Assembly: GCA_026986775.1 (NCBI GenBank)
Contig: JALSNX010000021.1
Coordinates: 1-33,095 of the forward strand
Direction: 5' to 3'
Source of the DNA: Caldifarciminota bacterium
Lineage (GTDB): Bacteria > Hydrothermota > Hydrothermia > UBA1063 > CAJXJZ01
Length of the DNA stretch: 33,095 nucleotides
In this document: piece after piece, positions 8,469 through 14,635 of the stretch
Position numbering within the stretch: position 1 is the stretch's first letter
How the letters are laid out: the number at the start of each line of letters is the position of its first letter
Notes under the pieces: generated by a model
Database searches by the model: none
What the model was told of the DNA's origin: nothing
What the model saw: only the letters and a program-made list of their open reading frames with translations
Made by a program: the position numbers and the translations under genes

Positions 8469-9599
8469 TTATTTTATTCTTTTTCCTTCTATATAAACCT
8501 CCATTGCTTCTGATTTGAGTTCAAATGGATGATGGGACCATATTACAAAGTCCGCATCCTTATCGGGTTCAAGGCTACCTACTTTCTTATCAACCCCCAG
8601 CAGTATAGCAGGATTGATTGTGATTGCTTTCAGTGCCTCTATTTCATCCATACCCTCTTTATGAGCCATTGCAGCGTAAAGTGTCAGGTATTTTGCATGA
8701 GTGAAGGGATGGTCGCTCATAATTGCAACTAAAAATTCGTGTTCGCTTAAGATTGCAGGGTTTTTGAATGATAAATTCTTAAGTTCAACCTTCCATGGAA
8801 AATACAAAAGTGGGCCGCTCACACATCCTATTATGTTTTTATATCCTTTCATTTCTTCCACCGCAAGGTGTCCCTCAGTGCAGTGCTCAATTATAATGGA
8901 AAGGTTAAATTCTTCGGCTATTCTCAGTGCAGTGAGTATGTCATCTTTTCTGTGGGCGTGTGCTCTTATGGGTATCTTTCGCCGCAAGGCCAGACACAGG
9001 GCTTCCTGCTGTGGGTCCCGTTCTTTACCTCTTCTTTTATTGCAGTACACACGGGCTTTGTAAAAGGCCTCTCTTATTATAGCGGCTATAGCCATTCTTG
9101 TTATGGGTTTCTTCCCATTAACACCGTAAGTTGCCTTTGGATTTTCTCCAAATGATAGTTTAAGGCCAGCCCTGTCTTTGAGTATCATATCCTTCAGATA
9201 ACCATCTTTTAGTTTTACAACTGCACCAAGACCGGCTATAGGATTGGAACTGCCGGGGGTTATATATACTGTGGTTATACCGCTTGCTCTTGTTTCCCTT
9301 ATTGCGGGGTCGTCGGGATAAAAGCCGTCAATTGCTTGAATATCCGGAGTTGTGGGATTTGTGCTTTCATTTAAATCAGCATAGTCACGTCCTGCCCCTT
9401 CTTCAACCATACCAATGTGGGAATGTGCATCAACAAGTCCAGGTGTTATGAATTTTCCTTTTACATTTATAATTTCTGCATTTTTTGGTAACCTTTTCCT
9501 TCTGAGAACCTTTACAATTCTGTTTTCTTCTATTATAAGGGCTCCATCTTTGAGCCACTCTGTTCCTGTGAAAATTCTTGCTCCAACAAATGCCTTCAT
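8469..9599 (-). CDS. Amidohydrolase (imidazolonepropionase-like), paralogue 1
   Basis: 376 aa metal-dependent hydrolase of the COG1228-like group. N-terminal and C-terminal beta-sandwich strands flank a TIM barrel. Metal ligands are visible: HSH (H59, H61) in DAHSHIG, HAH (H214, H216) in RAHAHRKDD, H239 and H244 in EHCTEGH, and D296 in MSDHP. The C-terminal ITINPAILLGVDKKVGSLEPDKDADFV is typical. Substrate is unknown; family members act on cyclic amides or on peptides (prolidase-like). AGGAGGAG precedes the ATG. It is 9 bp downstream of paralogue 2 and 10 bp upstream of the secreted carboxypeptidase, so a peptide-breakdown role is inferred. No signal peptide is seen, so it is probably cytoplasmic. 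Confidence 0.9.
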   Translation of the reverse strand: MKAFVGARIFTGTEWLKDGALIIEENRIVKVLRRKRLPKNAEIINVKGKFITPGLVDAHSHIGMVEEGAGRDYADLNESTNPTTPDIQAIDGFYPDDPAIRETRASGITTVYITPGSSNPIAGLGAVVKLKDGYLKDMILKDRAGLKLSFGENPKATYGVNGKKPITRMAIAAIIREAFYKARVYCNKRRGKERDPQQEALCLALRRKIPIRAHAHRKDDILTALRIAEEFNLSIIIEHCTEGHLAVEEMKGYKNIIGCVSGPLLYFPWKVELKNLSFKNPAILSEHEFLVAIMSDHPFTHAKYLTLYAAMAHKEGMDEIEALKAITINPAILLGVDKKVGSLEPDKDADFVIWSHHPFELKSEAMEVYIEGKRIK

Positions 9600-9608
9600 T
9601 TTCTCCTC

Positions 9609-10778
9609 CTATATTACTACCTTACCGTATTTTTTCAGGTCAAAAACTATTTCTCCATCAATTACAGTGTAAATCACTCTGTGTAATGGGTCAAGTATTG
9701 AAGTGTCAGTAATGGTAATATCGGCATCCTTCCCTTTTTCTATACTCCCCAATCTGTTATCAACTCCAAGTATTCTGGCCGCATTTATTGTCATTGCCTT
9801 AATGGCTTCGTCTTCTGGTAAACCTTCCCTTACTGCAAGTGCAGCCTCAAGTGGAAGTGTGTAGATGGGTATTACGGGCGCATCTGTTATAAATGCAAAA
9901 AGAACGTCGTTGTCATATAACGCTTTTGCTGTTTTAAAGGTTATATTCTTGAGTTCCTGTTTTATCTTTGTAGAAATTGAAGGGCCAAGGGCGCATGGTA
10001 TTTTCTTCTCACCGATGAAATCTGCTATGAGGTGCCCTTCTGTACAGTGTTCTATTGCAAATTTCAGGTCAAACTCGTTCATTATTCTCCATGCTGTAAT
10101 AATGTCGTCGGCTCTGTGGGAATGTATTCTTGCAGGATATTTACCTTCAAATACCCCTTTAATTGCTTCCAGATTGAGTTTAAATTTCCTGGGGTCGTTT
10201 TTGCTATTCTCATTCTTTTTATAATAGTTAAATGCTTCAAGTAATGCTTTTCTCGCAACGGCGGCATTTCCCAGCCTGGTAGATGGCAGTATGTTTTTAG
10301 AGGAATATACACGCTTTGGATTTTCTCCGAATGCCATTTTAAGTCCTGATGGTTCTTTTACGATCCTGTCTTTAAGTTTCTTCCCATAGGTTTTTACTGC
10401 TACCCCAAGTCCCCCTATTATATTCGCACTTCCGGGAAATATGTTTACTGTGGTTATTCCATTGGCGTAGGCGTCAAAGAACGCAGGGTCGTCTGGATTG
10501 ATGGCGTCAAGTGCTCTTAAATGTGGGGTGACAGGTTCAGAGTATTCATTTCCGTCAGCACCTGCCCATCCGGCATTCTCCTCATAAATACCCAGATGCG
10601 TGTGAATGTCTATGAGTCCGGGATAAATATGAAGTCCACCTGCATCAATGACTCTTGCGTCGGGATGGGATACATTTTCACCTATCTCTACTATTTTCCC
10701 ATCCTTAATGAGGAGGTCTCCCTTTATAGTCCCTGTGCTTGAAACAGTGTGAATAATTGCGTTTTTAAAGAGTATCAT
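9609..10778 (-). CDS. Amidohydrolase (imidazolonepropionase-like), paralogue 2
   Basis: 389 aa, aligned along its length with paralogues 1 and 3. All expected metal-site residues are present: HTH (H59, H61) in DIHTHLG, HSH (H219, H221) in RIHSHRADD, H244 and H249 in EHCTEGH, and D299 in FITDAP. The shared signatures GITTVNIFPGS and MAFGENPKRVY match GITTVYITPGS and LSFGENPKATY in paralogue 1. The start overlaps the stop of paralogue 3 by 4 bp (ATGA), with GAGGGGGG just upstream. Substrate unknown. No signal peptide. Confidence 0.9.
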   Translation of the reverse strand: MILFKNAIIHTVSSTGTIKGDLLIKDGKIVEIGENVSHPDARVIDAGGLHIYPGLIDIHTHLGIYEENAGWAGADGNEYSEPVTPHLRALDAINPDDPAFFDAYANGITTVNIFPGSANIIGGLGVAVKTYGKKLKDRIVKEPSGLKMAFGENPKRVYSSKNILPSTRLGNAAVARKALLEAFNYYKKNENSKNDPRKFKLNLEAIKGVFEGKYPARIHSHRADDIITAWRIMNEFDLKFAIEHCTEGHLIADFIGEKKIPCALGPSISTKIKQELKNITFKTAKALYDNDVLFAFITDAPVIPIYTLPLEAALAVREGLPEDEAIKAMTINAARILGVDNRLGSIEKGKDADITITDTSILDPLHRVIYTVIDGEIVFDLKKYGKVVI

Positions 10779-11899
10779 ATTTCCCCCCTCTGTACTATCT
10801 CTCCTTCTATCATGGTCCAGACCACTTTGCTTTTCCAGTCCATGGGGTCTTTGTCAAATGCCACGATATTGGCTATTTTACCCTCTTCAATATTGCCCAT
10901 GTCGTTTAATCCAAATATTTCGTATCCTGTCTGTGCAATGGCTTTAAGGGCACCCCATTTACTCAGCCCGGCCTTGTGAGCATACATGGCAAGAAATCTC
11001 AGAAGTTTTACAGGATTTTCACTCTGTGCATGGGATAATGCGAATTTGACACCATGGTCTTCAAGCACCTTGCACGTTCTGAAGGTTGTATTGCGTGTTT
11101 CGGGGTCTTTATCTGCCCTCATTAGTGGGCCAAGAATACATGGTATATTGTGTTCTTTGAGAAGTGATGGGATAAGATGTGCCTCTTCGCATCCGGATAG
11201 AATAAGGGAAAAACCAAACTCTTCTTTCAGCGCTATAACTCTTTCTATGTCGTCTCTACGATGAACATGCACAAGAAGAGGTATTTCCCCTTTCAGTACC
11301 ATGGATAGAAGTTTCATATCCTCTTTTGAATTATCCCTTTTCTTTTCAGATTTCTTCATATATTCGCGTGTCTCTTCAAGTTTCTTCCTGAGGACTGCAT
11401 ATGCATACATCTTTGTCCTGAGTTTGTCTTTTTGATGATATGCTATTGGTGTACGTGTCAAATTTACCTTTATGCAACAGGGCTCCTTTATGAAGAGGTC
11501 GTTGATAGATTTTCCATGGGTTTTTATGATGGTCCCAGCACCTGCTATAATGTTTGAAAATCCTGGCATAACTATTGCTGTGGTAATACCCCACGATGCA
11601 GATTCCTTTATAGCAGGGTCTTCAGGGTGTATTGCATAGGATGGTAGCATCTGGGGTGTTATAATATCGGACGTTTCATTAAGATCAAATTCTCTGTATC
11701 CCACTCCATCTTCGGCTATACCAAGAAAAGTATGGGGGTCTATCATGCCATACATCAGAAAAAGCCCGTTTGCATCTATGATTTTGTTCCCTTTAAGCCC
11801 TTTAGCTATACGCTTAATTCTGCCTTCGGTGATTTCAATATCACCCTCTACTACTTTTTTGTTTGAAAAATCAAGGATTCTGGCATTCTGAATAACCAC
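10775..11899 (-). CDS. Amidohydrolase paralogue 3 with degraded metal site
   Basis: 374 aa from GTG 11899 (378 aa if ATG 11911 is used). It has the same fold and signatures as the next two genes (GITTAIVMPGFSN, VHVHRRDDI, GNIEEGKIANIV). The metal site is broken in three places (numbering from the ATG): HxH is HTF (H60, F62), the EHC ligand is SGC (G240 replaces His), and the catalytic Asp aligns without gaps to Ala295 in SHAQS. H215, H217 and H245 remain. It is probably not an active hydrolase of the usual type; a partner role for the active paralogues is inferred. GTG is preferred because GGAGG (11905-11909) sits 5 nt before it, whereas the ATG has no ribosome site. It is the first gene of the operon. 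Confidence 0.85.
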   Translation of the reverse strand: MVIQNARILDFSNKKVVEGDIEITEGRIKRIAKGLKGNKIIDANGLFLMYGMIDPHTFLGIAEDGVGYREFDLNETSDIITPQMLPSYAIHPEDPAIKESASWGITTAIVMPGFSNIIAGAGTIIKTHGKSINDLFIKEPCCIKVNLTRTPIAYHQKDKLRTKMYAYAVLRKKLEETREYMKKSEKKRDNSKEDMKLLSMVLKGEIPLLVHVHRRDDIERVIALKEEFGFSLILSGCEEAHLIPSLLKEHNIPCILGPLMRADKDPETRNTTFRTCKVLEDHGVKFALSHAQSENPVKLLRFLAMYAHKAGLSKWGALKAIAQTGYEIFGLNDMGNIEEGKIANIVAFDKDPMDWKSKVVWTMIEGEIVQRGEI

Positions 11900-11904
11900 T
11901 TTCG

Positions 11905-11909
11905 CCTCC
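11905..11909 (-). promoter_or_regulatory. Ribosome binding site that selects the GTG start of amidohydrolase 3
   Basis: GGAGG lies 5 nt before GTG 11899-11897 and overlaps the upstream ATG (11911-11909). The sequence before the ATG (GCAATAAGAAC) has no Shine-Dalgarno match. The GTG start also lines up better with the N-termini of the two downstream paralogues. Confidence 0.6.
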
Positions 11910-11936
11910 ATGTTCTTATTGCTAATTAGTTTTTAA

Positions 11937-12030: not shown

Positions 12031-13521
12031 TTATTTATTGCATAACCCGCATAATCTGCAATATTCTGGTTTGCATTCTGGAGTTAGTCTTGCATTGTGA
12101 TATTTTGCAATCTCTCTCTTTATAAAAGAGTTTGTTACTCCGATGTTTACAGGATGGGTGGATACGAGTTGCGCTATTTTAGATGTATCAAACAGGTATG
12201 TTTCAAAGTTAATGTTTTTACGAATGGACTCACCGGAATATACTTTTCTGTAAAGTGCCATTCCTATCTCCTCATCTCCCCGTGCAAGCAGGACTTCCAC
12301 TTTTGCATGGTGATAGGATGGAAGCCTGAGATGCAGTCTTTTTTTGCTGGATAAACCTTTGAGTATTTTTAACTTTTTTCTGATATCTTTTTCCTCGGCA
12401 AACTGCTTTGAAGCTAAAGGAGTATGAAATTTTGGTACGAATATGCTGACTGTTACCTTAACGCTGCCTCTGTAAATCATCAGGATTTTTTCCAGGAGTT
12501 GTCTAATTTCTTCCACATTTTCGGGGGTTTCTTCCGGTAAGCCAATTATAAAATACAGCTTCAGTGACATTATTTTGTGCTTCTGAAGCAATTCAACAAG
12601 AAAGTAAATGTCCTCGTCAAGATAAGGTTTATTGATTTTCTTTCTCAAAGTTTTACCAGTTTCAGGTGCTATGGTTACTGTTTTTACTCCACCTTTCTTA
12701 AACAGGTTTATAAGATGAGGCTTTTTCAGTATATCTTTAAGTCCCATTGAAGAAAATGACATTTTTTTGTATATTCTAAGTGTTTCCTCAAGAATTTCGG
12801 TTATACGGGGATGAGAGAGTATTGCACTACCGACAAAACCGGCTGTTTGTGCCCGAGCTTTTCCTTTATGCAGTATCGTTTTTACAACATCTTCTGGCAT
12901 GAATCTTGGGGGGAGATAGGCATGTCCTAAAAGGCAGAATCTACATTTTTTTGGGCAACCACGCTGTATTTCAAGGAGGAACATGTTAAAGTATGATTTA
13001 TCAGATATTATTGCAGAGAATGCCCTTGATAGTGAAAGGTCCATAAGGTAAGTTCTGCTGGCATATTCCTTTTGCCCTGGTATAATGGAATATGATTTTT
13101 TTGCGAGGTAATTTTCTAATGTGTGTTTTTCTTCAAAAATCCACTCAGCGTCATTCAATATGGATTCAGCTTCACCTATTAATAAAACATCAAAGAAAGG
13201 GAAGAGGGGACGGGGATTGAGGATCACAGCTGGACCGCCAGCTATCAGAACTGGCAAGCGGTGTTTATCTCTGAATGGCTTAATATTCCAGTTTTTTAGA
13301 ATATGTAGCACATTTTCATAGTCTGGTTCAAATGGAATACTGAAAAAAATAACAGGAAATTCTGTTAGGGGCTCATTTTTAAAAAGACTTCCTTTTGAAT
13401 CAAGGAAAAAAATATCGGTTTCCCCGTATTTTTTCAGGAGATGGAGAAGCGTATGAGGAGCGAGGTTGGAAAGCCCCAGTCGCTCCTCCTCAGGAAATAC
13501 AATGGCAATCTTTTTTTTAAT
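12031..13521 (-). CDS. Radical SAM protein with B12-binding-like N-terminus; no canonical start codon
   Basis: 496 aa if read from ATT 13521; the first ATG/GTG/TTG is GTG 13311, which would give 426 aa. Codons 1-70 are open, in frame, and look like a family N-terminus: KIAIVFPEEERLGLSNLAPHTLLHLL, then FSIPFEPDYENVLHIL. The radical SAM 4Fe-4S motif CxxxCxxC is C189, C193, C196 (RGCPKKCRFC). SAM-binding parts follow (TIAPETG, LKLYFIIGLPEETPENVEE). The C-terminus ends in C483-x4-C-x2-C-x2-C494, a possible second cluster site. It resembles uncharacterised radical SAM proteins of the TIGR03960/YgiQ-like type. ATT overlaps the ftsZ stop (ATTAA). Alternatives are CTG at 13479, which has GAGGAGGAG upstream, or a sequencing error in the A8 run. 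Function is unknown. It is the last gene of the dcw unit. Confidence 0.8.
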   Translation of the reverse strand: MKKKIAIVFPEEERLGLSNLAPHTLLHLLKKYGETDIFFLDSKGSLFKNEPLTEFPVIFFSIPFEPDYENVLHILKNWNIKPFRDKHRLPVLIAGGPAVILNPRPLFPFFDVLLIGEAESILNDAEWIFEEKHTLENYLAKKSYSIIPGQKEYASRTYLMDLSLSRAFSAIISDKSYFNMFLLEIQRGCPKKCRFCLLGHAYLPPRFMPEDVVKTILHKGKARAQTAGFVGSAILSHPRITEILEETLRIYKKMSFSSMGLKDILKKPHLINLFKKGGVKTVTIAPETGKTLRKKINKPYLDEDIYFLVELLQKHKIMSLKLYFIIGLPEETPENVEEIRQLLEKILMIYRGSVKVTVSIFVPKFHTPLASKQFAEEKDIRKKLKILKGLSSKKRLHLRLPSYHHAKVEVLLARGDEEIGMALYRKVYSGESIRKNINFETYLFDTSKIAQLVSTHPVNIGVTNSFIKREIAKYHNARLTPECKPEYCRLCGLCNK

Positions 13522-14635
13522 TGTTCTTGCGGCCCTTTTTCTTTAAGATAGAAGGTATTCTCGGTGCATGGACTCTTTTGTGGATAGCAGGAATTTCTTC
13601 GCTGGATTCTGCAAGGTCTTTTTCCACTGAGAGCTCTTCCTGAATATTTTCCTCATTTTCAGTCATTTTCCCCCGGGTGGCAATAATGGTTACCTCCACA
13701 TCATACTCTGGCTCCTCTCCATAGGGAAAATTACCTATACCAAAAAAGACCTCGTGTTCATCATCAGTGGTATTTGTTATTTCCTTGATGTAGTTTACCG
13801 CTTTTTCAATTTTCTTTAGAGACATTCTCTCAGGAATGCCTGTGAAATAGGCAAGAATATTTCTTGCATTAATCATCGTCCCATCTTTAAGGAGCGGGTT
13901 GTTGATGGCCTGTTCAACCGCTTCCATCACCGCATTATCTCCTGAACCTGTGCCACTTCCCATTATGGCTCTTCCGCCTTCTCTTATTGTGGTCTCTAAG
14001 TCTGCAAAATCAACATTTACCGTTCCCACTCTGAAAATGATTGATGTTATCCCCCTTACGGCCTGATACAGCATGTTGTCTGCAATATGGAAGGCTTCTT
14101 CATAGGACAAATCCTGTGGAGCTATTTCTATAAGTTTTTCGTCTTCAATGACCAGCAGGGTATCAACAGTATCCTCTAATTCTTCAAGTGCGCTCAATGC
14201 CTTTTTCATTCTTTTTTTACCCTCAAATGCAAAAGGAAGTGTGACTATGCCTATTGTTAATATACCCAGTTCTTTTGCCAGTTTTGCCACAACTGGAATA
14301 CCACCTGTACCAGTTCCCCCGCCGAGTGTCGCCACCAGCATCAAAAGGTCTGTTCCTTCTATCGTATTCTTTACTTCCTCTATTGAAGACTCCATGGCAA
14401 TTCTGCCTTTTTCAGGGTCACCTCCTGCACCAAGCCCCTTTCCCAGTGTTATTTTTTTATGAGCGAGCGTTATTGAAAGTGCCTTGGCATCTGTGTTTGC
14501 TGCGATTAAATAACCGTTTGCAAGGTTCTGTTTATAAATGTAAGTAATGACGTTTGAACCTCCACCTCCTATTCCCATTATTTTAAGTCTTGCAGGAACA
14601 TCCTGTTTTTTTGAAGAATCGTCTAATATAAACAT
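13517..14635 (-). CDS. ftsZ: Cell division protein FtsZ
   Basis: 372 aa tubulin-like GTPase that forms the division ring. GGGGSNV (23-29) and the tubulin signature GGGTGTG (105-111) bind GTP. The T7-loop motif NVDFADLET supplies the catalytic Asp residues. A variable linker (about 315-355) ends in the conserved C-terminal peptide PRIPSILKKK (cf. DIPAFLRKQ), which binds FtsA and other anchors, followed by basic residues. A strong AGGAGGT lies 8 nt before the ATG. It lies 12 bp after ftsA, the classic pair order. Confidence 0.98.
   Translation of the reverse strand: MFILDDSSKKQDVPARLKIMGIGGGGSNVITYIYKQNLANGYLIAANTDAKALSITLAHKKITLGKGLGAGGDPEKGRIAMESSIEEVKNTIEGTDLLMLVATLGGGTGTGGIPVVAKLAKELGILTIGIVTLPFAFEGKKRMKKALSALEELEDTVDTLLVIEDEKLIEIAPQDLSYEEAFHIADNMLYQAVRGITSIIFRVGTVNVDFADLETTIREGGRAIMGSGTGSGDNAVMEAVEQAINNPLLKDGTMINARNILAYFTGIPERMSLKKIEKAVNYIKEITNTTDDEHEVFFGIGNFPYGEEPEYDVEVTIIATRGKMTENEENIQEELSVEKDLAESSEEIPAIHKRVHAPRIPSILKKKGRKNN

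What the first reader, a model, noticed from the sequence alone, without database searches (positions are those of the whole stretch)
13309..13549. Radical SAM gene lacks any ATG, GTG or TTG at its true N-terminus
Seventy in-frame codons upstream of GTG 13311 encode a family-like N-terminus (KIAIVFPEEERLGLSNLAPH). In that stretch the only candidates are ATT 13521 (overlapping the ftsZ stop as ATTAA), a second ATT at 13509, or CTG at 13479 with GAGGAGGAG upstream. It may use a rare start coupled to ftsZ termination, or the A8 run holds an error. Automated annotation would cut off the first 70 residues.
Basis: partly seen in the sequence, partly recalled or inferred. Interest (0 to 1): 0.6.

Follow-up and report, generated by a model that had tools for sequence, protein, structure and literature searches.

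The report
Radical SAM gene with non-AUG start
An enzyme gene that begins exactly where the cell-division gene ftsZ ends has none of the usual start signals, and its relatives in the same bacterial group share this, most of them carrying the very rare start codon AUA at the same spot, so standard annotation would clip off the front of the protein.

Summary
The radical SAM (rSAM) frame after ftsZ is coding for 70 codons upstream of GTG 13311 and has no ATG, GTG or TTG there. It is not a lone error. Of 12 WOR-3/Hydrothermota genomes with the gene directly after ftsZ, 9 lack a usable canonical start. Eight of these carry an in-frame ATA 11 nt before to 3 nt after the start of the ftsZ stop codon, with the best (in one genome joint-best) Shine-Dalgarno (SD) match among the non-canonical candidates. 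The window has ATT overlapping the stop (ATTAA). No indel of the A8 run gives a canonical start, and the ftsZ-to-rSAM frame offset takes all three values within one genus, which argues against a frameshift fusion. The same genomes use ATA/ATT in other genes: a glycosyltransferase (ATA in 4/4 congeners, GTG/ATG at the homologous codon elsewhere), TatD, an NAD-epimerase, and infC (ATT). Best reading: a weak AUU/AUA start beside the ftsZ stop, probably served by translational coupling. In the window itself the SD is weak, so the exact codon (ATT 13521, less likely CTG 13479) is inferred. The kind is known (infC, pcnB, S. aureus ccpN); the conserved stop-tracking case next to ftsZ appears new.

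The parts
13517..14635 (-). ftsZ, upstream gene, stop TAA at 13519-13517
   Evidence: TIGR00065 E=3e-86
12031..13521 (-). radical SAM gene, full-length reading frame from ATT 13521 (496 aa)
13519..13521 (-). most likely start codon ATT, overlapping the ftsZ stop (ATTAA)
   Evidence: position at the ftsZ stop as in relatives; inferred
13532..13538 (-). weak Shine-Dalgarno match AAAGGGC, 10 nt upstream of ATT 13521
   Evidence: -4.3 kcal/mol
13511..13518 (-). A8 run, beginning in the ftsZ stop codon (after its T); indels in it give no canonical start
13507..13509 (-). alternative ATT, no SD match
13477..13479 (-). alternative CTG start; would delete the first beta strand and the invariant V and P of IVFP
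13483..13491 (-). GAGGAGGAG, SD-like, codes Glu-Glu-Glu; not conserved in congeners
13309..13311 (-). GTG, first canonical start, which standard annotation would choose (426 aa)
13543..13545 (-). in-frame TAA that closes the rSAM frame upstream

Best explanation
The rSAM gene is translated full length from a near-cognate start codon at the ftsZ stop: ATT 13521 in the window, ATA in eight relatives. Ribosomes that finish ftsZ most likely re-engage at the overlapping or abutting AUU/AUA, helped in most genomes by an SD inside the ftsZ tail. The weak codon keeps output of this enzyme low next to a highly expressed gene and could make it sensitive to IF3, as for infC. Shown: N-terminal coding, lack of canonical starts, conserved ATA position with SD in relatives, and use of ATA/ATT starts in other genes of these genomes. 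Inferred: the exact codon in the window, termination-reinitiation, low output and IF3 control.
For: N-terminus coding, conserved and structured. Nine of 12 genomes with ftsZ upstream have no usable ATG/GTG/TTG; ATA lies 11 nt before to 3 nt after the start of the ftsZ stop codon in eight. In genus g2 the ATA is separated by 8 codons from the conserved Trp codon in 4/4 genomes, exactly where the sister genus has TTG with SD (L004). L006/L014 have AGGAGG just upstream of ATA in ATAG (-10.9 and -9.8 kcal/mol). ATA has the strongest SD among the candidates listed at its junction in seven of eight genomes and ties in L003. Anti-SD is canonical. infC starts at ATT after AAGGAGGTAGGAT in the genus. 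The glycosyltransferase has AGGAGG-N9-ATA in 4/4 congeners with GTG/ATG at the homologous codon in distant relatives; TatD has ATA in 4/4, GTG/ATG outside the genus; the NAD-epimerase has ATT in 3/3. Conserved AUA/AUU starts with strong SDs are experimentally known in S. aureus (PMC13009471).
Against: The window's own ATT has only a weak SD at long spacing (-4.3), whereas CTG 13479 has a strong one (-11.1). In E. coli reporters without an SD, AUA in an AUAA or UAAUA junction did not start the downstream gene (PMC9955659). In g2 the ATA lies inside the overlapping ftsZ tail, so part of its conservation may be FtsZ-driven. In-frame ATA/ATT/ATC near a stop is not rare by chance in an AT-rich genome. 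No protein or ribosome data exist.
Confidence: 0.68

Rival explanations
1. The window's gene starts at CTG 13479 behind GAGGAGGAG, giving a protein 14 residues shorter.
For: Strongest SD of the candidates (-11.1 kcal/mol); CTG is a known weak start (own knowledge).
Against: Removes the first beta strand (E4-9) and the invariant V and P of IVFP. The two congeners have neither this SD nor a CTG. The GAG run codes Glu-Glu-Glu, and IVFPE upstream of it is unchanged in all three congeners.
Confidence: 0.15
2. FtsZ and rSAM are joined by programmed frameshift or stop readthrough into one fusion protein.
For: The frames abut or overlap; in L002 only one in-frame TAA separates them.
Against: The ftsZ-to-rSAM frame offset takes all three values within the genus (L001, L002, L003), with no shared slippery site. 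The A8 run starts inside the ftsZ stop codon, after its T, so slippage there cannot remove the stop. In four genomes the gene is not next to ftsZ and has ATG; two ftsZ-linked genomes have ATG and one TTG.
Confidence: 0.06
3. Sequencing or assembly error hides an ordinary start.
For: Homopolymer A8 at the junction.
Against: A6-A10 give no ATG/GTG/TTG. Relatives from independent MAG projects lack one as well. ftsZ is intact.
Confidence: 0.03
4. The protein really starts at GTG 13311 and the upstream similarity is a relic.
For: First canonical start.
Against: Upstream codons are under purifying selection in three congeners and form three strands of the N-terminal domain.
Confidence: 0.03

Closest known systems
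Conserved AUA/AUU starts of Staphylococcus aureus infC, ccpN, cvfC1, citZ (PMC13009471)
   Same: Near-cognate AUA/AUU starts, conserved across relatives, with strong SD; a handful per genome; output about 10-30% of AUG in reporters there.
   Different: Not reported at a stop-start overlap with an abundant upstream gene; unrelated phylum; in the WOR-3 rSAM some SDs are weak.
E. coli infC and pcnB AUU starts
   Same: AUU start limiting translation; IF3-dependent logic; infC itself starts at ATT in these WOR-3 genomes.
   Different: rSAM start overlaps the upstream stop; the upstream gene is ftsZ.
Termination-reinitiation at ATGA/TGATG overlaps (PMC6728339)
   Same: Start and stop codons share bases; SD within the upstream gene.
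   Different: Start codon is ATA or ATT (ATAA, ATAG, ATTAA) instead of ATG; E. coli AUAA without SD failed in a reporter (PMC9955659).
TIGR03960 / MgmA-like B12-type radical SAM proteins
   Same: Radical_SAM and Radical_SAM_N2 domains; best solved match MgmA 9ccb by sequence and fold.
   Different: Far below the TIGR03960 cut-off (155.6 vs 462.3 bits); substrate unknown.

Membership tests
Genes with a near-cognate (AUA/AUU) start | Coding N-terminus with no ATG/GTG/TTG | tested here: met
Genes with a near-cognate (AUA/AUU) start | AUA/AUU at the expected N-terminus, conserved in orthologues | tested here: met
   ATA in 8 orthologues, ATT in the window
Genes with a near-cognate (AUA/AUU) start | Strong SD at proper spacing | tested here: inconclusive
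   Strong in L006, L014, L008, L009; moderate in L002, L003, L007, L011; weak in the window
Genes with a near-cognate (AUA/AUU) start | Initiation at that codon seen by ribosome profiling, proteomics or reporter | not testable with these tools
Termination-reinitiation gene pairs | Start and stop codons overlap or lie within a few nt | tested here: met
   start 11 nt before to 3 nt after the start of the stop codon in all nine
Termination-reinitiation gene pairs | Downstream translation depends on upstream translation | not testable with these tools
   Needs a reporter experiment
Programmed frameshift fusion | Constant frame offset and conserved slippery site | tested here: not met
   offset takes all three values inside one genus
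TIGR03960 radical SAM family | Score above curated cut-off | tested here: not met
   155.6 vs 462.3 bits
Radical SAM superfamily (PF04055) | Pfam score above cut-off and CxxxCxxC cluster motif | tested here: met
   67.5 vs 29.5 bits; CPKKCRFC in the translation, three Cys invariant

The most novel reading that the evidence does not exclude
An order-level clade of WOR-3/Hydrothermota has recruited AUA/AUU as regular, conserved start codons for a small regulon (infC, ftsZ-coupled rSAM, TatD, a glycosyltransferase, an NAD-epimerase), possibly tuned together by IF3 level, with AUA reinitiation directly at stop codons.
Probability: 0.25. Interest if true: 0.75.

Novelty: new variant of a known kind. 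Interest (0 to 1): 0.52.

Why it matters
Gene finders allow only ATG, GTG and TTG in practice, so such proteins are published truncated, here without the first part of the enzyme's N-terminal domain. A conserved AUA/AUU start that stays at the stop codon of ftsZ while the frame between the two genes changes would be a natural case of near-cognate start selection next to a terminating ribosome.

Tried and rejected
First genome-contig scan with the single protein found nothing. General enrichment of ATA/ATT at SD-positioned codons: none (G000 ATA 14 observed vs 21 expected), so these starts are few, not a genome-wide relaxed code. Candidates rejected after inspection because an in-frame ATG with SD or nearby exists: UPF0173-like hydrolase, Fur-like regulator, HslV and others. 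All-against-all comparison of 791 kb of G000 with 400 kb each of G005 and G087 gave no further clear case in the part of the output shown (it was cut). A PadR-like ORF with a possible CTG start stays unresolved. A8 indel error, frameshift fusion and GTG 13311 start rejected as above.

Full report
Observation. On the minus strand ftsZ ends AAC AAT TAA and the rSAM frame passes through that stop in another phase. It is open from an in-frame TAA at 13545-13543 to 12031, and its first ATG/GTG/TTG is GTG 13311. The protein matches Radical_SAM and Radical_SAM_N2. A missing canonical codon over 70 codons is not rare by itself (4.7% of internal stretches), so the question is whether those 70 codons are protein. 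They are. All 15 orthologues align there with invariant V and P of IVFP. Congeners differ mostly at third positions. AlphaFold gives pLDDT about 88-97, with residues 4-9 as the first strand of the N-terminal domain.

Relatives. Only 16 genomes in the phylum set hold this orthologue. GenBank titles name the relatives candidate division WOR-3 / Candidatus Hydrothermota, from separate MAG projects. Twelve have the gene directly after ftsZ. Six of them (L001, L002, L003, L006, L007, L014) have no ATG/GTG/TTG between the upstream in-frame stop and the conserved core. L011 has only a TTG deep inside ftsZ, and L008/L009 only a GTG inside the conserved N-terminus that is GTA or ATC in sister species. 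L004 has TTG with a strong SD and L015/L016 have TGATG. Four genomes with the gene elsewhere have ATG.

The codon. Eight of the nine carry ATA at the junction: TAAATA in L002, ATAA in L003, ATAG behind AGGAGG in L006 and L014, and ATA 8 or 11 nt before the stop in L007, L008, L009 and L011. In the last four, 8 codons separate ATA from the conserved Trp, the same distance as the TTG start of L004. Scored against the canonical anti-SD, ATA has the strongest SD of the candidates listed at seven of these junctions and ties with an ATC inside the core in L003. The window has ATT overlapping the stop, with only a weak SD (-4.3 kcal/mol at spacing 10). CTG 13479 has a stronger SD (-11.1), but the two congeners lack it and it would remove the first strand.

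Independent support. In the same genus infC starts at ATT behind AAGGAGGTAGGAT, the classic case. A sampled scan and orthologue searches found three more. A family 4 glycosyltransferase has AGGAGG-N9-ATA in all four congeners and GTG or ATG at that codon in more distant genomes. TatD has ATA in all four g2 genomes, with GTG or ATG outside. An NAD-epimerase has ATT in three of three. A control from another family of the phylum showed none in 400 kb. These starts remain few: there is no general enrichment of ATA or ATT at SD-positioned codons, and a further all-against-all comparison showed no other clear case in the output seen.

Alternatives. Changing the A8 run to 6, 7, 9 or 10 gives no canonical start, and the run begins inside the ftsZ stop codon after its T, so slippage there cannot fuse the genes. 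Frameshift fusion is unlikely because the offset between the two frames takes all three values in one genus. Against the favoured reading stands an E. coli reporter in which AUAA and UAAUA junctions without SD gave no downstream product (PMC9955659). In S. aureus AUA/AUU starts with strong SDs work at about 10-30% of AUG (PMC13009471). Initiation at AUA/AUU therefore seems to need an SD, which most of these junctions have and the window has only weakly.

Mechanism. I infer that ribosomes terminating on ftsZ re-engage at the adjacent weak start, giving a low, ftsZ-linked supply of a radical SAM enzyme. The best solved match is the B12-type methylase MgmA by sequence and fold; the substrate is unknown. 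Coupling, low output and IF3 sensitivity are untested.

Verdict. Observation confirmed and the rare-start interpretation supported. The exact codon in the window is inferred. Start codons of this kind are known; the conserved, stop-tracking version next to ftsZ and the small set of conserved ATA/ATT genes in this clade appear not to be described in the papers I could search.

Noticed in passing
L232-L235 (G000-G003), G000:C9:6389-7438: Family 4 glycosyltransferase gene with conserved AGGAGG-N9-ATA start in all four congeners; distant relatives have GTG/ATG at that codon.
   Followed up: yes
L221-L224, G005:C1:85102-85872 and orthologues: TatD DNase gene with ATA start in all four species of genus g2.
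   Followed up: yes
L228-L230, G005:C1:162365-163330: NAD-epimerase gene with conserved ATT start behind an AGG-rich SD.
   Followed up: yes
L189 18787-19179 (-), G000:C3: PadR-like ORF with coding N-terminus and a possible CTG start behind GGAG.
   Followed up: partly
L033 (G001): A congener has ftsZ but no detectable rSAM orthologue.
   Followed up: partly
window 8469-11911 (-): Three consecutive amidohydrolase-like genes downstream of the rSAM gene.
   Followed up: no
G000:C30:126855-128459: A longer rSAM paralogue (792-codon frame, 31% identity) elsewhere in the genome.
   Followed up: no
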